Source: an uncultured Pedosphaera sp.
GTDB lineage: Bacteria; Verrucomicrobiota; Verrucomicrobiia; Limisphaerales; Pedosphaeraceae
Assembly: GCA_903918755.1 (NCBI GenBank)
Contig: CAIXFN010000081.1
Location: forward strand, 62,001-126,000
DNA: 64,000 bases
Reading direction: 5' to 3'
Shown piece by piece: positions 59,014-63,783 of this stretch. Each line of letters begins with the position of its first letter. The first letter of the stretch is position 1. The translations under genes were made by a program, and so were the position numbers. The notes under the pieces are model-generated. The model was not told the DNA's origin, did no database searches, and saw only the letters and a list, made by a program, of their open reading frames with translations.

Positions 59014-60855
59014 TCAGGCGTAAACGATCATGTGGATGTCCTCCGGCAGGCTCTGGGAAATTTGGCGGATCACATTGCCGCGCAACAGGCTGACCAGGCC
59101 TTTCCGCTCCGGACTCCCCAGAATCAGCTGGCTCGCCCCCATGGTGGCCGTGATGTCCACAATGGTATCCGCCACGGAATCGCTGACCGCATAGCACGGG
59201 AACACGGGGTGCCCGGCGGCCTGGGCACGAGCCTGGGTAAAGACCGCGCTCGCCTCGCCGTCGTCCTGCCACTTACGTTGGTAATCTTCAGAGCTCAGCA
59301 CCGGCAGGGTGCGCACAAAGAGCAGATAGAGGGGCCGGCGGGTTTCCCGGGCCTGTTCGAGGGCAAAGTCCAGCGTCTTCCCCAGTCCCCGCACCGCGCA
59401 AAGAATGGGGGCGCCATCCACATGCTCCATCGGGGGATGCGGCACGGTGACCTCGGCGGCGGCCGGGGCGGGTCCGGCGGCGGCCAACTTGGCCGCGGCG
59501 GCGGCGGCGGCGGCCTTCTTGCGCTGCGCCTGTTCGGCCGCCAAGCCGCGCAGGATCAGCCCGATGGTGAGCACCGTGACGGTGAACACGCGGGCATTGC
59601 TTTTCGTCCAGAACAGCGAAAGCTCGATGGCCAGCATGATCAAGAATGTGGTAAACATGAGCAATCGCTCCCAGGTGAGGAGGCCCAGCTTCCGGTCCGT
59701 GGAACTGGCGCCCAGGTTGGTCGCGATCGCGCCCACCACCCCCACGGCGTAGAGATCCGCCAGTCCCGCCATATCCTTCACCGCCAGCACCAGGATCAGG
59801 GGAATCGCCGTGGCCACCAAAATGCCCAGGTTGGGCACCCCATGCTTGTTGAGCTTTTGGAAGCCGGACGGCAGCTCGCCATCCCGCGACATCAGGTAGG
59901 ATATCGCAATGAGATCCACGATGGCCGTGTTGACGGCGGAAAGGAGCAGGAACCCGAAGACCAGGCTCACCGCCCAGCCGGCGATCCAGCCCGCGGTCGT
60001 GCCCAGCGCGCCGCCCACAAACACCTGCCCCATGTAACGCAGCATGTAGTCCCGGACCCCGGGATTACCCGGGGCATCCACATCATCCTTGTTGATCGCC
60101 AGGCCGGGCAGCGCATGCATCGCCAGGCCCAAGAGCGCGGTAAACAGGCAAACCTCGATCATGACCCACAACAGCGCCGGAGTGGAAGTCTTGGTCACCA
60201 TGGGTTTCGCCTCGGAGCTGCCCGGATTGAGCTTCATCACCCCGGTGGAATTGGCAATCGCCTCGACGCCGGAAAGCGCCAGCACCACCCCCACGAAGCC
60301 CGTCCAGTTCTTCCAGAACCCGCCGGTCAACGGCTGCAAGTTGTGCACCGCCGCGCCCAGGTGCGGCACGCAAAAAGCGCCCAGCAACAGCACCACCAGG
60401 GCGGCCGGGACCGAAATCCAGAAGGCCAATCCGCCCGAGTGCTTTGGGCCAAAAATGTTGATCGCCCCGATCAAACCGATGGCCGCCGCGGCATACCATT
60501 CCGGGTGCGGGATCCCGACGTATTGGAAGGCGGATAACGCGCTCAAGGCCGCCGTCACGATGTAGTCGGCGATCAGCAGAAACGCCCCGACAATGGAGAC
60601 GATCTCCGAGCGGTGCCGCACACTGGCATATACCCCGCCGCCGTCGGGATAGTGCTTGCAAATGGCCATGTAGTTTACGCCGACAAGAGCCGTCAGAACG
60701 CACATGGCGGCAATCAGCCAGAAAGAGCTGTAGCCCGCCACGGCAAAGGCCAACCCGATGACGTAAGCCTTACTGGTGCCCCAGTCGCCGTAAAGCAAGG
60801 CGGCGGCCCGCGGCGTGTCCACGTTGCGTGGACGCTTGGTGTTGCTCGCAATCAT
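59014..60855 (-). CDS. kimA: KimA-like potassium importer (APC superfamily with C-terminal USP domain)
   Basis: A 613-residue protein with about 12 transmembrane helices over residues 25-435. The early HYPDGGGVYASVRHRSEIVS motif and LLIADYIVTAALSALSA helix match the KUP/KimA group. After an Ala/Lys-rich linker (about 440-460; KKAAAAAAAAKLAAAG) is a universal-stress-protein-like domain (485-613) with GASQLILGSPERKGLVSLLR. B. subtilis KimA has the same transporter plus cytosolic USP-like domain and is under a c-di-AMP riboswitch. The riboswitch at 60952 makes this a potassium importer shut off by c-di-AMP. It converges on the kinase gene, 24 bases away. Confidence 0.85.
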   Translation of the reverse strand: MIASNTKRPRNVDTPRAAALLYGDWGTSKAYVIGLAFAVAGYSSFWLIAAMCVLTALVGVNYMAICKHYPDGGGVYASVRHRSEIVSIVGAFLLIADYIVTAALSALSAFQYVGIPHPEWYAAAAIGLIGAINIFGPKHSGGLAFWISVPAALVVLLLGAFCVPHLGAAVHNLQPLTGGFWKNWTGFVGVVLALSGVEAIANSTGVMKLNPGSSEAKPMVTKTSTPALLWVMIEVCLFTALLGLAMHALPGLAINKDDVDAPGNPGVRDYMLRYMGQVFVGGALGTTAGWIAGWAVSLVFGFLLLSAVNTAIVDLIAISYLMSRDGELPSGFQKLNKHGVPNLGILVATAIPLILVLAVKDMAGLADLYAVGVVGAIATNLGASSTDRKLGLLTWERLLMFTTFLIMLAIELSLFWTKSNARVFTVTVLTIGLILRGLAAEQAQRKKAAAAAAAAKLAAAGPAPAAAEVTVPHPPMEHVDGAPILCAVRGLGKTLDFALEQARETRRPLYLLFVRTLPVLSSEDYQRKWQDDGEASAVFTQARAQAAGHPVFPCYAVSDSVADTIVDITATMGASQLILGSPERKGLVSLLRGNVIRQISQSLPEDIHMIVYA

Positions 60856-60951
60856 ATATTATGGATGGTTTGCTCCGGGGTACAATCCCGCTACCGGAAT
60901 GAGTCCGTTACTGACTTGGGGGGAGGAGCGTTCTCGAGAGAACTCCTTGCC

Positions 60952-61091
60952 CTTAATGTTGACGCTGGCGAGGTTAGCTGTCGGGCTGGAACCAATAAGT
61001 ATTCCCGGCGCAGCCGCGCCGTTAGCCCCGAATCCGTTGAGCGGATAGGATGGGTTCCCCGCTGGCCTGACGATCAGATCAGGCCATTAAG
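60952..61091 (-). promoter_or_regulatory. c-di-AMP riboswitch (ydaO/yuaA class)
   Basis: On the minus strand the RNA opens with CTTAATG (61091-61085) and closes with the complementary CATTAAG (60958-60952), a 7-bp P1 stem. The conserved 3' consensus AGCCCGACAGCTAACCTCG is at 60987-60969, followed by CCAGCGTC. Upstream are GGGGAACCCA (61060-61051) and GGGGCTAAC (61029-61021), in the order of the ydaO consensus. The expression platform is a hairpin (60925-60946). It precedes the KimA-like gene by ~97 bases. Confidence 0.9.
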
Positions 61092-61110
61092 CAGACAAAG
61101 AACTAAGCGC

Positions 61111-61139
61111 TTTATCGTCGAAACCCGTCGGCAAGTCAA
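61111..61139 (-). promoter_or_regulatory. Promoter of the riboswitch-kimA transcript
   Basis: On the minus strand TTGACT (61139-61134), a 17-base spacer and GATAAA (61116-61111). It starts transcription near 61104, just before the P1 strand of the riboswitch at 61091, as expected for a riboswitch leader. Confidence 0.75.
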
Positions 61140-61230
61140 GTCCCGTAAATCCCGCGCGGCGAACCGGTCATTTTGCCCTTTCTCCGTTTTCCCCATTTGC
61201 GAAACGGGCCGCCCCCCTTATCGTAGCGGC

Positions 61231-63783
61231 GTGACAAGCATCGCGGATCAACTGGCGGACCACCCAAGGCTCAATCTGGTCACCGTCCCGGACCTTTGGC
61301 AACAGCAGGCGGTGGCCGCGCTGCGGGCGGGCCGGGATGTGGTGGTGCAGGCGCCCACCGGCGCCGGCAAGACGCTGATTTTCGAATTGTGGTCCAAAAG
61401 TGGTAAAAACCGCGGCCAGGCGATTTACACGGTTCCGACGCGCGCGCTCGCGAATGACAAACTGGCGGAATGGCGCGCCCGCGGCTGGGATGTGGGCATC
61501 GCCACCGGCGACCTGGCGGACAACCTGGGCGCTCCCATCCTCGTGGCCACGCTGGAAACGCAAAAGAACCGGCTTGTGCAGGGGTTCGGTCCCGCCCTGC
61601 TCGTGGTGGACGAATACCAGATGATCGGGGACGCGGACCGCGGTTTGAATTACGAGCTCGCGCTCGCCCTGGCCCCACCGCAAACCCAGTTTTTGCTGCT
61701 CAGCGGGAGTGTCGCCAACCCCCAGGATGTGGTCAAATGGCTGCAACGACTGGGCCGCGACGCCGTCCTGATCCGGCACGAACACCGGCCCGTGCCGCTG
61801 GAGGAAGTCCACGCCAATCACCTCAGTTTTCACGTGCCTGCGGAAATCCGGGGCTACTGGCCGCGCCTGGCCGCGAAGGTGCTCGCGGAGGATCTGGGGC
61901 CGGTGCTCATCTTCGCGCCCCGCCGGCAGGCGGCGGAGGCAATGGCGGTGGAACTCGCGCGCAATTTGCCCATCCCCAATCCCCTCCAACTCAGCCCCGA
62001 ACAAAAGCAGTTGGTCGGCGAACACCTGGCCAAATTGCTCAAGAGCCGGATCGCGTTCCATCATAGCGGACTAAGTTATGGGGCTCGTGCGGGCGTCATC
62101 GAGCCGTTGGCCAAGGCGGGGCAACTCCGCATTGTCGTCGCCACCATGGGACTGGCCGCCGGCATCAATTTCTCCCTGCGCAGTGTGGCCCTGGCCGGCG
62201 CCTCCTACCGGCGGGACCAGGTGGAACAACCGCTCAAATCGGACGAGATTTTGCAAATGTTCGGCCGGGCCGGCCGGCGCGGATTGGACGAAACCGGTTA
62301 CGTGCTGATCACGGCAAATGAGTTGCGTTTGCTCGACGCGCATGCCGGCCACCTGGCGCGCAGCGCCGCGGTGGATTGGAGCGCGCTCCTGGGGCTGATG
62401 ACCCTGGCGGCCCAAAACCACCGCGATCCGTTCCGGGAGGCCGTGCGCGTCCAGGAGCGCCTTTTCACCACCAAGCCCATCGTGCTCGGCGTCGAGGAAT
62501 CCCTGAAGCATCCCGAGGTCCCCTGCGGTTTGAAAACCGATGCCGAGCGCGCGCGGCATGTCCGGCAGTTCGACCGGGAATTCCTGAACAGCCGCGACGA
62601 ATGGGAACGGTTCACCACCCAGACGGAAAAGCCGTTGCGCGAGATCTTCATTCGCCCGCCGTTGGCGGCCGACGCCCCACCAGCGACCGCGGAGCCGGCC
62701 GCGCTGCCGCCCAGCACGCAAGTGCCCCTGCGTCCGCTACTGACGGAAACGGCCGCGCTGGAAAAGATCGGGACTGGCACATTAGTCGCAGTCGGCACGA
62801 CCGGGGAACCGGGAACCGCACCGGCCGCGCCGGTTTACGGACGGAGCTTCGCCGTGGCGGACCGCCTGGTGGACGACCGGGTGTTGATCGCCAAATGGAT
62901 CCGCCGGATGACGGATTGGCACGGGCGCCAGGCCCCGCTGGCCGTCTGGCGCGCCGAAATCGCACCCCTGGTGGCGGCGGGGTTGACCAAATTGCGCACG
63001 CCGCTGGTGCGGTTCGTCGAGGAACCCGGGCGAATCCTGGCGGAGGTCAGCCTGGCGGAATTGCCGATGCGGGTCCCGCTTGACCGGCATGGCGTGCCGC
63101 TTTGGAAACCACCCACCCGGGAGGTATTGCAACGCGATTGCGCCCGCTGTGAACTGGTCACCACCTGCCGGCAACTCCCCACGAGCACCGGCACCGCCTT
63201 GCTCTGGCGGCGCCTCGGCCTGGTGGATGCCGCGGGCGTGCCCACCCGTCGGGGGCAGATTGTCAGCTTTTTCTCGCAAGGGGACGGGCTCGCCATCGCG
63301 GCTGCGCTGGAGGATGCCCGCTACCCGTTGACGGAACTCGTCTATGACCTGGCCAACCTGGATGCGGGTTTCCGTTTTTGCGGTGACGAAAACCGCTGGG
63401 CGGGGCGGCTGGCAATCGCCTGCCACCAGCTCTTTGGCCTGCAATCCATCCCGGGTTATCTGGAAAATGGCACCCCACCCAAATACGGTTCCGGGGCGGA
63501 ACAAGTGGTGACTTCGGTCCACCAGAATCCGCTGAACAAACATCAATGGGTCACCGACCTGGTGGGCACCGGGGACATTGATCGCATCATTATCGAGTGG
63601 CGCAGCCTCCTCCGACAAATCGCCCATGCCCCGGAACTGGAATGGACGCGTTGGCAGGAATTACAAAAACTGGCCAGGGGGATGCTGAACGAAACCGAAT
63701 CCCCGACCCTGACCAATCTGCCGCCGCTGGAATATCACCAGACCAAACGGGTGGATCACCGCCTGCAACTGCGCCGCCACTAA
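61231..63783 (+). CDS. DEYQ-box superfamily 2 helicase (Ski2-like)
   Basis: An 850-residue protein starting at a GTG at 61231 (VTSIADQLADH); the longer open frame from 60613 overlaps kimA and its riboswitch antisense and is rejected. Motif I is APTGAGKT (41-48), motif II is DEYQ at 127-130 (LLVVDEYQMIGDADRG), motif III LLSGS, motif VI QMFGRAGRRGLDETG (342-356). The linker with ATMGLAAGINFSLRSVALAG is typical of Ski2-like enzymes. A C-terminal ~450-residue extension has CARCELVTTC with Cys637, Cys640 and Cys646, possibly metal-binding. A rare DEYQ variant replaces the usual DExH. Role in RNA or DNA metabolism is unknown. No operon partner is seen on the same strand. Confidence 0.85.
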   Translation: MTSIADQLADHPRLNLVTVPDLWQQQAVAALRAGRDVVVQAPTGAGKTLIFELWSKSGKNRGQAIYTVPTRALANDKLAEWRARGWDVGIATGDLADNLGAPILVATLETQKNRLVQGFGPALLVVDEYQMIGDADRGLNYELALALAPPQTQFLLLSGSVANPQDVVKWLQRLGRDAVLIRHEHRPVPLEEVHANHLSFHVPAEIRGYWPRLAAKVLAEDLGPVLIFAPRRQAAEAMAVELARNLPIPNPLQLSPEQKQLVGEHLAKLLKSRIAFHHSGLSYGARAGVIEPLAKAGQLRIVVATMGLAAGINFSLRSVALAGASYRRDQVEQPLKSDEILQMFGRAGRRGLDETGYVLITANELRLLDAHAGHLARSAAVDWSALLGLMTLAAQNHRDPFREAVRVQERLFTTKPIVLGVEESLKHPEVPCGLKTDAERARHVRQFDREFLNSRDEWERFTTQTEKPLREIFIRPPLAADAPPATAEPAALPPSTQVPLRPLLTETAALEKIGTGTLVAVGTTGEPGTAPAAPVYGRSFAVADRLVDDRVLIAKWIRRMTDWHGRQAPLAVWRAEIAPLVAAGLTKLRTPLVRFVEEPGRILAEVSLAELPMRVPLDRHGVPLWKPPTREVLQRDCARCELVTTCRQLPTSTGTALLWRRLGLVDAAGVPTRRGQIVSFFSQGDGLAIAAALEDARYPLTELVYDLANLDAGFRFCGDENRWAGRLAIACHQLFGLQSIPGYLENGTPPKYGSGAEQVVTSVHQNPLNKHQWVTDLVGTGDIDRIIIEWRSLLRQIAHAPELEWTRWQELQKLARGMLNETESPTLTNLPPLEYHQTKRVDHRLQLRRH

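What the first reader, a model, noticed from the sequence alone, without database searches (positions are those of the whole stretch)
60952..61139. c-di-AMP riboswitch with its promoter in front of a KimA-like importer
The AGCCCGACAGCTAACCTCG box and paired P1 ends match the ydaO class, and the promoter starts transcription about 13 bases before P1. It implies c-di-AMP signalling and potassium-import control in this lineage. The hairpin that follows lacks a clear U-tract, so control may be translational or use an atypical terminator.
Basis: partly seen in the sequence, partly recalled or inferred. Interest (0 to 1): 0.6.

Follow-up and report, generated by a model that had tools for sequence, protein, structure and literature searches.

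The report
c-di-AMP riboswitch before potassium-importer gene
A bacterium of the Verrucomicrobiota carries what by sequence and structure is an RNA switch for the signal molecule c-di-AMP in front of a gene for a probable potassium importer; the switch belongs to a known class, but related bacteria seem to use the same class for some unexpected membrane-scaffold and outer-membrane genes.

Summary
Rfam's c-di-AMP (ydaO/yuaA) model matches window 61103-60947 (-) over its full length at 51.1 bits (cut-off 38, E 6e-9), 91 bases before a 613-aa transporter gene. The genome has a CdaA-type cyclase and one more such riboswitch. In 22 leaders 15 of 39 consensus pairs show two-sided changes, and TTGAC sits at a fixed distance in 19 of 22. 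"KimA-like" is right for fold and potassium-site residues, but the protein is a separate KUP/KimA-related branch with a Usp-type tail, not a KimA orthologue. No U-tract terminator lies in the window. I propose an OFF switch in which outer helix P0 competes with hairpin H1 and frees a strand that can mask the start region; that step is inferred, and termination remains a serious rival. The class was already predicted in Verrucomicrobia (PMC6488665, passage), so novelty is modest. Less expected: in class Verrucomicrobiae, 26 of 97 examined c-di-AMP riboswitches precede SPFH/Band-7 genes, and three genomes show a riboswitch-porin-importer order.

The parts
61134..61139 (-). promoter -35 element TTGACT
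   Evidence: sequence; TTGAC at the same distance in 19 of 22 leaders
61111..61116 (-). promoter -10 element GATAAA (4 of 6), 17-base spacer
   Evidence: sequence; sequence degenerate in relatives; generic scan negative
61094..61102 (-). 5' strand of outer helix P0 (UUCUUUGUC), just after the inferred +1 at A61104
   Evidence: AGTTCTTTG exact in 20 of 22 leaders; RNAalifold pairs 61099-61093 with 60952-60946; extension to 61102 from duplex and constrained folding
60947..61103 (-). c-di-AMP riboswitch aptamer (RF00379); P1 = 61093-61090 with 60966-60963
   Evidence: cmscan 51.1 bits, E 6.3e-9, model 1-134
60943..60952 (-). post-P1 purine strand GGGCAAGGAG: 3' strand of P0, overlaps the 5' strand of hairpin H1
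60925..60946 (-). hairpin H1 (GGAGUUC...GAACGCUCC) without U-tract
   Evidence: RNA folding; no terminator-like site in the window leader
60872..60876 (-). GGAGC, possible alternative partner of GCUCC 60929-60925, ending 16 bases before the start codon
   Evidence: the fold with P0 enforced includes this pairing; function is inference
59014..60855 (-). KUP/KimA-related transporter with C-terminal Usp domain, 613 aa, ATG at 60855

Best explanation
A c-di-AMP riboswitch of the ydaO class (shown by sequence and structure) lies in the 5' leader of a gene for a K+ importer related to KUP and KimA (fold by prediction, substrate inferred). Transcription starts at about A61104 (inferred from promoter position), so the RNA begins with the 5' strand of an outer helix P0. 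With little c-di-AMP, the purine strand after P1 (GGGCAAGGAG) folds into hairpin H1 and the start-codon region stays open. With much c-di-AMP (two molecules per aptamer in known members), P1 and P0 are locked, H1 cannot form, and its 3' strand (GCUCC) pairs downstream (GGAGC) and masks the region before the start codon. The importer is thus switched off when potassium and c-di-AMP are high. The OFF direction follows from known members; masking of the start region, rather than termination, is inferred.
For: Rfam hit over the whole model. The same aptamer lies 68-100 bases before the orthologous gene in 11 of 15 named orthologue loci, and 1.5 kb before it in a twelfth, L041, with a porin gene between. 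Covariation: 15 of 39 consensus pairs with two-sided changes in 22 leaders; the seven P0 pairs (columns 6-14 with 170-176) are kept in 19 to 22 of 22 sequences each. CdaA equivalog. Foldseek top hit is KimA with c-di-AMP, E 2.1e-15; profile hit KimA 4.6e-10, next best 0.025. KimA's K+ ligands Asp36, Tyr43, Thr230, Tyr377 and the transport residues Asp117 and Glu233 correspond to D24, Y31, S195, Y369, D97 and E198, each invariant in the 26 aligned sequences; at 195 the invariant residue is Ser where KimA has Thr. With the aptamer core enforced, the H1 state is 6.4 kcal/mol below the P0 state, and the P0 state contains GCUCC:GGAGC, so ligand energy could tip the balance. No U-tract terminator in the window leader.
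Against: Without constraints the leader folds differently (-93.5 kcal/mol) and not clearly better than shuffles. P0 beats shuffles at p<0.05 in only 7 of 22 leaders (mean p 0.23) and fails in L047, L054 and L040 (p 0.96, 0.94, 0.61). H1 and the alternative pairing are kept in 89% and 87% of cells in 11 Chthoniobacterales-type leaders but show 1 and 0 two-sided changes; shuffles reach the observed values in 47 of 500 and 500 of 500 (percentage paired), so covariation does not support the alternative pairing. Terminator-like hairpins occur in 9 of 22 leaders against 1.5 expected, so termination is not excluded for the group. The window has no Shine-Dalgarno at normal spacing to be masked (best at -25 to -17). 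KimA's c-di-AMP-contacting Arg337 aligns with Ser330. Of 30 close homologue loci, 17 have no riboswitch match directly or through a porin operon. Binding, direction and transport were not measured.
Confidence: 0.65

Rival explanations
1. Same aptamer and gene, but control is by transcription termination: H1 or a later hairpin acts as an atypical (weak U-tract) or Rho-dependent terminator when c-di-AMP is bound.
For: The c-di-AMP riboswitches described in the two papers I looked into terminate transcription (PMC6488665, passages; PMC9337991, passages). Terminator-like hairpins in 9 of 22 leaders against 1.5 in mononucleotide shuffles. A second hairpin of the Chthoniobacterales-type leaders has two-sided changes in 4 of 10 pairs and a covariation score that 0 of 500 shuffles reach, and is followed by TTT or TTTT in most of those rows.
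Against: The window leader itself has no hairpin followed by a T-run on the minus strand. In L033, L036 and L042 the T-run is 3-4 bases long and lies 11-12 bases before the start codon.
Confidence: 0.33
2. The downstream gene is an amino-acid or other APC permease, not a potassium importer, and the riboswitch tunes an osmolyte or counter-ion transporter.
For: Pfam sees only a sub-threshold AA_permease match besides Usp; single-sequence phmmer finds no PDB relative at E 0.01; the amino-acid transporter BasC follows KimA in the Foldseek list with a higher target TM-score, 0.78 against 0.61.
Against: KimA is first by Foldseek and the only profile hit below E 0.02. The KUP-type motif YGDxGTSxxY and the K+-site residues are invariant in 26 aligned sequences. 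The genome has KdpA but no match for TrkH, K_trans (Kup) or TrkA_C, which leaves room for another K+ importer.
Confidence: 0.2

Closest known systems
c-di-AMP (ydaO/yuaA) riboswitch, Rfam RF00379
   Same: full-length covariance-model match, conserved core boxes, covarying helices, upstream of a K+-transport-type gene, CdaA in the genome
   Different: the leader seems to add an outer helix P0 formed by the 5' end of the transcript (Rfam's consensus shows no pairs there); no intrinsic terminator with U-tract in the window
KimA of Bacillus subtilis (PDB 6s3k, 8b70, 8b71), itself behind a c-di-AMP riboswitch (PMC6488665, passage)
   Same: fold, K+-site residues, C-terminal cytosolic domain, riboswitch in front of the gene
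   Different: about 16% identity; Pfam Usp domain where KimA's domain is described as PPAT-like; YGD motif in TM1 that KimA lacks (PMC6994465, passage); Arg337 not kept
Kup of E. coli (PF02705 family)
   Same: TM1 motif YGDxGTSxxY, aligned by BLASTP to a Verrucomicrobial Kup, L008
   Different: no PF02705 match in the protein or the genome
Verrucomicrobial c-di-AMP riboswitches among those before ktr/trk/kdp/kup predicted earlier (PMC6488665, passage)
   Same: phylum, class of RNA and type of gene
   Different: that passage does not name this KUP/KimA branch, SPFH genes or porin operons

Membership tests
c-di-AMP riboswitch (RF00379) | covariance-model score above the curated threshold | tested here: met
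   51.1 bits against 38, full model
c-di-AMP riboswitch (RF00379) | helices supported by covariation in relatives | tested here: met
   15 of 39 pairs with two-sided changes in 22 sequences; the sequences were chosen with the same Rfam model
c-di-AMP riboswitch (RF00379) | cis position before K+/osmolyte/cell-wall genes | tested here: met
   91 bases before a KUP/KimA-related gene; 68-100 bases in 11 of 15 orthologue loci
c-di-AMP riboswitch (RF00379) | organism makes c-di-AMP | tested here: met
   gene for a CdaA equivalog present; synthesis itself not measured
c-di-AMP riboswitch (RF00379) | binds c-di-AMP and lowers expression | not testable with these tools
   needs in-line probing and reporters
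KimA | sequence relationship to KimA | tested here: inconclusive
   profile of 26 sequences E 4.6e-10, single sequence no hit at 0.01
KimA | fold | tested here: met
   Foldseek ranks 1-3, E 2.1e-15 to 7.7e-12, TM 0.50-0.61, rmsd 14-15, on a model of mean pLDDT 75.7
KimA | K+-coordinating residues Asp36, Tyr43, Thr230, Tyr377 | tested here: met
   D24, Y31, S195 (Ser for Thr), Y369; the TM1 mapping rests on the Kup alignment, as HMMER's own alignment puts W25 on Tyr43
KimA | c-di-AMP-contacting Arg337 (not essential for inhibition) | tested here: not met
   aligned residue Ser330
Kup (PF02705) | K_trans model match | tested here: not met
   no PF02705 match in the protein or anywhere in the genome

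The most novel reading that the evidence does not exclude
In Verrucomicrobiae, c-di-AMP riboswitches form a wider envelope regulon than the known K+/osmolyte one: besides K+ importers (Kup, KimA-type, Kdp, Trk and the KUP/KimA-Usp branch of the window) they directly control SPFH/Band-7 membrane scaffold proteins of three groups and, in some genomes, an outer-membrane BBP2 porin in one operon with the importer. The messenger would then adjust membrane scaffolding and outer-membrane permeability together with potassium uptake.
Probability: 0.5. Interest if true: 0.6.

Novelty: new member of a known kind. Interest (0 to 1): 0.36.

Why it matters
It suggests that the c-di-AMP/potassium circuit known from Firmicutes is present with a distinct importer branch in the Verrucomicrobiota. 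The recurrent link to SPFH scaffold genes offers a testable function for bacterial flotillin-like proteins: a part in potassium or osmotic control through c-di-AMP.

Tried and rejected
Chance resemblance was rejected (E 6e-9, conservation in relatives and covariation). "No cyclase" was rejected. Orthology to KimA was rejected in favour of a separate branch (no tree was built). An intrinsic terminator in the window was not found. A boxA-like reading of the 5' AGTTCTTTG (a motif recalled by me, from no call) was considered and not tested; pairing in P0 would explain its conservation as well. A c-di-AMP site on the Usp tail was not tested. PgpH-type phosphodiesterase (PF07697) was not found in the genome; GdpP was not tested. 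Of the 15 named orthologue loci, L035 and L037 show no aptamer match; in L043 the leader breaks off inside the aptamer and joins the middle of the gene, so it was dropped from the leader alignments.

Survey rows: one search listed 100 places in 384 genomes of the class. 97 were examined: 87 of the 88 loci (L006 lies outside the class) plus 10 importer-type places (the window and L045, L047, L048, L050-L052, L054, L056, L061). Not examined: one at a contig end (G482:C130) and two below the cut-off (G606:C202, G425:C105). One examined place, L148 (counted as SPFH), is itself just below the cut-off. One search left 11 loci unassigned. Of these, L081, L114, L125 and L129 pass Pfam's Band_7 cut-off; L130 and L136 are shortened ORFs without a Pfam match that resemble L129 by eye; L147 is Kup by Pfam (one search had taken the wrong strand for it); L141 and L144 (eroded SPFH, by eye), L145 (APC remnant, by eye) and L085 (contig end) stay unassigned.

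Full report
The feature. On the minus strand the window reads promoter (-35 TTGACT 61139-61134, 17 bases, -10 GATAAA 61116-61111), inferred start at A61104, riboswitch aptamer 61103-60947, hairpin H1 60946-60925, and ATG at 60855 of a 613-aa gene ending at 59014. cmscan with Rfam gives RF00379 at 51.1 bits, full model, E 6.3e-9, the only match at gathering level in 64 kb. The divergent gene on the plus strand is a DEAD/DEAH helicase.

Conservation. A genome-contig scan with the protein gave 15 loci, titled as MAGs of Pedosphaera, Limisphaerales, Spartobacteria, Chthoniobacterales or Verrucomicrobia; the window's own lineage is inferred from these. Twelve of 15 carry the riboswitch: 11 sit 68-100 bases before the gene and L041 1.5 kb before it; L035, L037 and L043 have no Rfam match. 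In 384 genomes of the class, 108 encode a relative at E 1e-100. Of the 30 closest loci (L044-L073), 11 have the riboswitch directly upstream (the window's own and 10; none), two more (L059, L062) have it before a porin gene that precedes the importer, and 17 have neither. In 22 aligned leaders the RNAalifold consensus has 39 pairs, 15 with at least one two-sided change. TTGAC lies 33-36 bases before AGTTCTTTG in 19 of 22; L040, L047 and L061 are the exceptions.

The circuit in this genome. G000 (7.19 Mb, 96.9% complete) has two RF00379 matches and one DAC domain, in a CdaA equivalog by NCBIfam (227.1 bits, cut-off 188.8) with a CdaA_N match; the next gene has a YbbR match below the cut-off. 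I read the flanking ORFs as folP and glmM (names recalled, not tested). TrkH, K_trans, TrkA_C and 7TMR-HDED were not found; KdpA was. A 45%-identical paralogue (C14) has no riboswitch match. The second riboswitch precedes a 610-aa SPFH/Band-7 gene.

The transporter. Pfam gives Usp (40 bits) at the C-terminus and a sub-threshold AA_permease; NCBIfam gives nothing. An AlphaFold2 model on 26 sequences has mean pLDDT 75.7. Foldseek ranks three KimA structures first, and a profile finds KimA at 4.6e-10, next best 0.025. From passages of PMC10284832 and PMC6994465, KimA's K+ ligands are Asp36, Tyr43, Thr230 and Tyr377, and Asp36, Asp117 and Glu233 are equivalent to Kup residues essential for transport. 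They map to D24, Y31, S195, Y369, D97 and E198, each invariant in the 26 aligned sequences; position 195 is Ser where KimA has Thr. The TM1 part of this mapping uses Kup D23 = KimA D36 and the BLASTP alignment of the YGD motif with a Verrucomicrobial Kup; HMMER's own alignment starts at W25, placed on Tyr43, in another register. KimA's Arg337 falls on Ser330. A Verrucomicrobial KimA relative, L015, matches KimA at 1.2e-58 but the window protein only at E 0.003, the same value as Kup L008. So I take the importer for a third, Usp-tailed branch; no tree was built.

Mechanism. RNAalifold on the 22 leaders finds an outer helix, P0, between the transcript's 5' end and the purine strand after P1 (window 61099-61093 with 60952-60946); pairwise folding extends it to 61102. 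It shares bases with hairpin H1. With the aptamer core enforced, H1 is favoured by 6.4 kcal/mol without ligand, and the P0 state includes GCUCC 60929-60925 with GGAGC 60876-60872 before the ATG. The unconstrained minimum is another fold (-93.5 kcal/mol; z -1.63 for a slightly longer piece). In 11 Chthoniobacterales-type leaders the analogous pairing CGACUC with GAGUCG just before the start is kept in 87% of cells, against at most 33% when slid, but with no two-sided change, and all 500 shuffles reach that percentage. H1 there is kept in 89% with one two-sided change (47 of 500 shuffles as good). A second hairpin has two-sided changes in 4 of 10 pairs. P0 beats mononucleotide shuffles at p<0.05 in 7 of 22 leaders, mean p 0.23, with p 0.61-0.96 in three. 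In 20 leaders whose start codon was read, anti-Shine-Dalgarno pairing at normal spacing is weak: the window's best lies at -25 to -17, and L036 has -4.0 kcal/mol at -9. Nine of 22 have a terminator-like site against 1.5 expected; the window has none. I therefore favour start-region masking for the window, with termination as a serious rival.

The wider regulon. RF00379 occurs in 24 of 387 genomes sampled over the phylum and 85 of 384 of the class; both counts used stricter filters that lose weak matches. Of 100 places in the class, 97 were examined: Kup 23, APC/KimA-type 22, SPFH/Band-7 26, KUP/KimA-Usp branch 14 (2 of them behind a BBP2 porin), its sister branch 2, KdpA 4, TrkH 2, unassigned 4 (two look like eroded SPFH genes, one like an APC remnant, one is at a contig end). 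Assignment is by blastp to 11 reference proteins; nine of these references were named by Pfam, the other two are the window protein and its paralogue L074. For SPFH: 20 by blastp to two Pfam-confirmed references, 4 by Pfam directly, 2 shortened ORFs by eye. One of the 26 lies behind a riboswitch match just below the cut-off. Only one APC-type protein was compared with KimA. A third riboswitch-porin-importer locus, L041, comes from another collection.

Known or new. A passage of PMC6488665 states that c-di-AMP riboswitches before ktr, trk, kdp and kup transcripts had been predicted in phyla that include Verrucomicrobia. Two primary papers that I recall were not held. Searches pairing c-di-AMP, ydaO or riboswitch with flotillin, SPFH, Band 7, prohibitin or stomatin listed no paper whose title or abstract start links them (listings only, capped); this does not cover most subscription journals. 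The window element is therefore a new member of a known class; the SPFH and porin links are the less expected part.

Noticed in passing
L004:5935-7767 (-), riboswitch G000:C34:197968-198134 (-): The genome's other c-di-AMP riboswitch (63.3 bits) precedes a 610-aa SPFH/Band-7 protein; 26 of 97 examined riboswitches of the class precede such genes.
   Followed up: partly
L041:1306-2998; L062:3306-4718 with L018; L059 with L099: In three genomes a BBP2-type outer-membrane porin gene lies between the riboswitch and the importer gene (Pfam in two, blastp in the third).
   Followed up: partly
L141, L144: c-di-AMP riboswitch followed by what look like short remnants of an SPFH gene and then an endonuclease/exonuclease/phosphatase-like ORF (both by eye).
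   Followed up: no
L036:2336-2411 (-), L061:3728-3807 (-): Fluoride riboswitch (RF01734) close to the importer gene in two relatives.
   Followed up: no
L007: c-di-AMP riboswitch match of 86.3 bits 62 bases before a citrate synthase gene in a genome elsewhere in the phylum.
   Followed up: no
L043, about 2337-2600: Contig in which the aptamer breaks off at its conserved box and joins the middle of the importer gene: a deletion or an assembly error.
   Followed up: no
A3, columns 55-84 (Chthoniobacterales-type leaders): A second leader hairpin with a top nearly always CTCGTCGCGCGAG and a covarying base lies shortly before the start codon.
   Followed up: partly
window 61168-63783 (+): Divergent ORF for a DEAD/DEAH helicase (NCBIfam best Hel308-like, far below cut-offs) of about 870 aa starts right behind the riboswitch promoter.
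   Followed up: no
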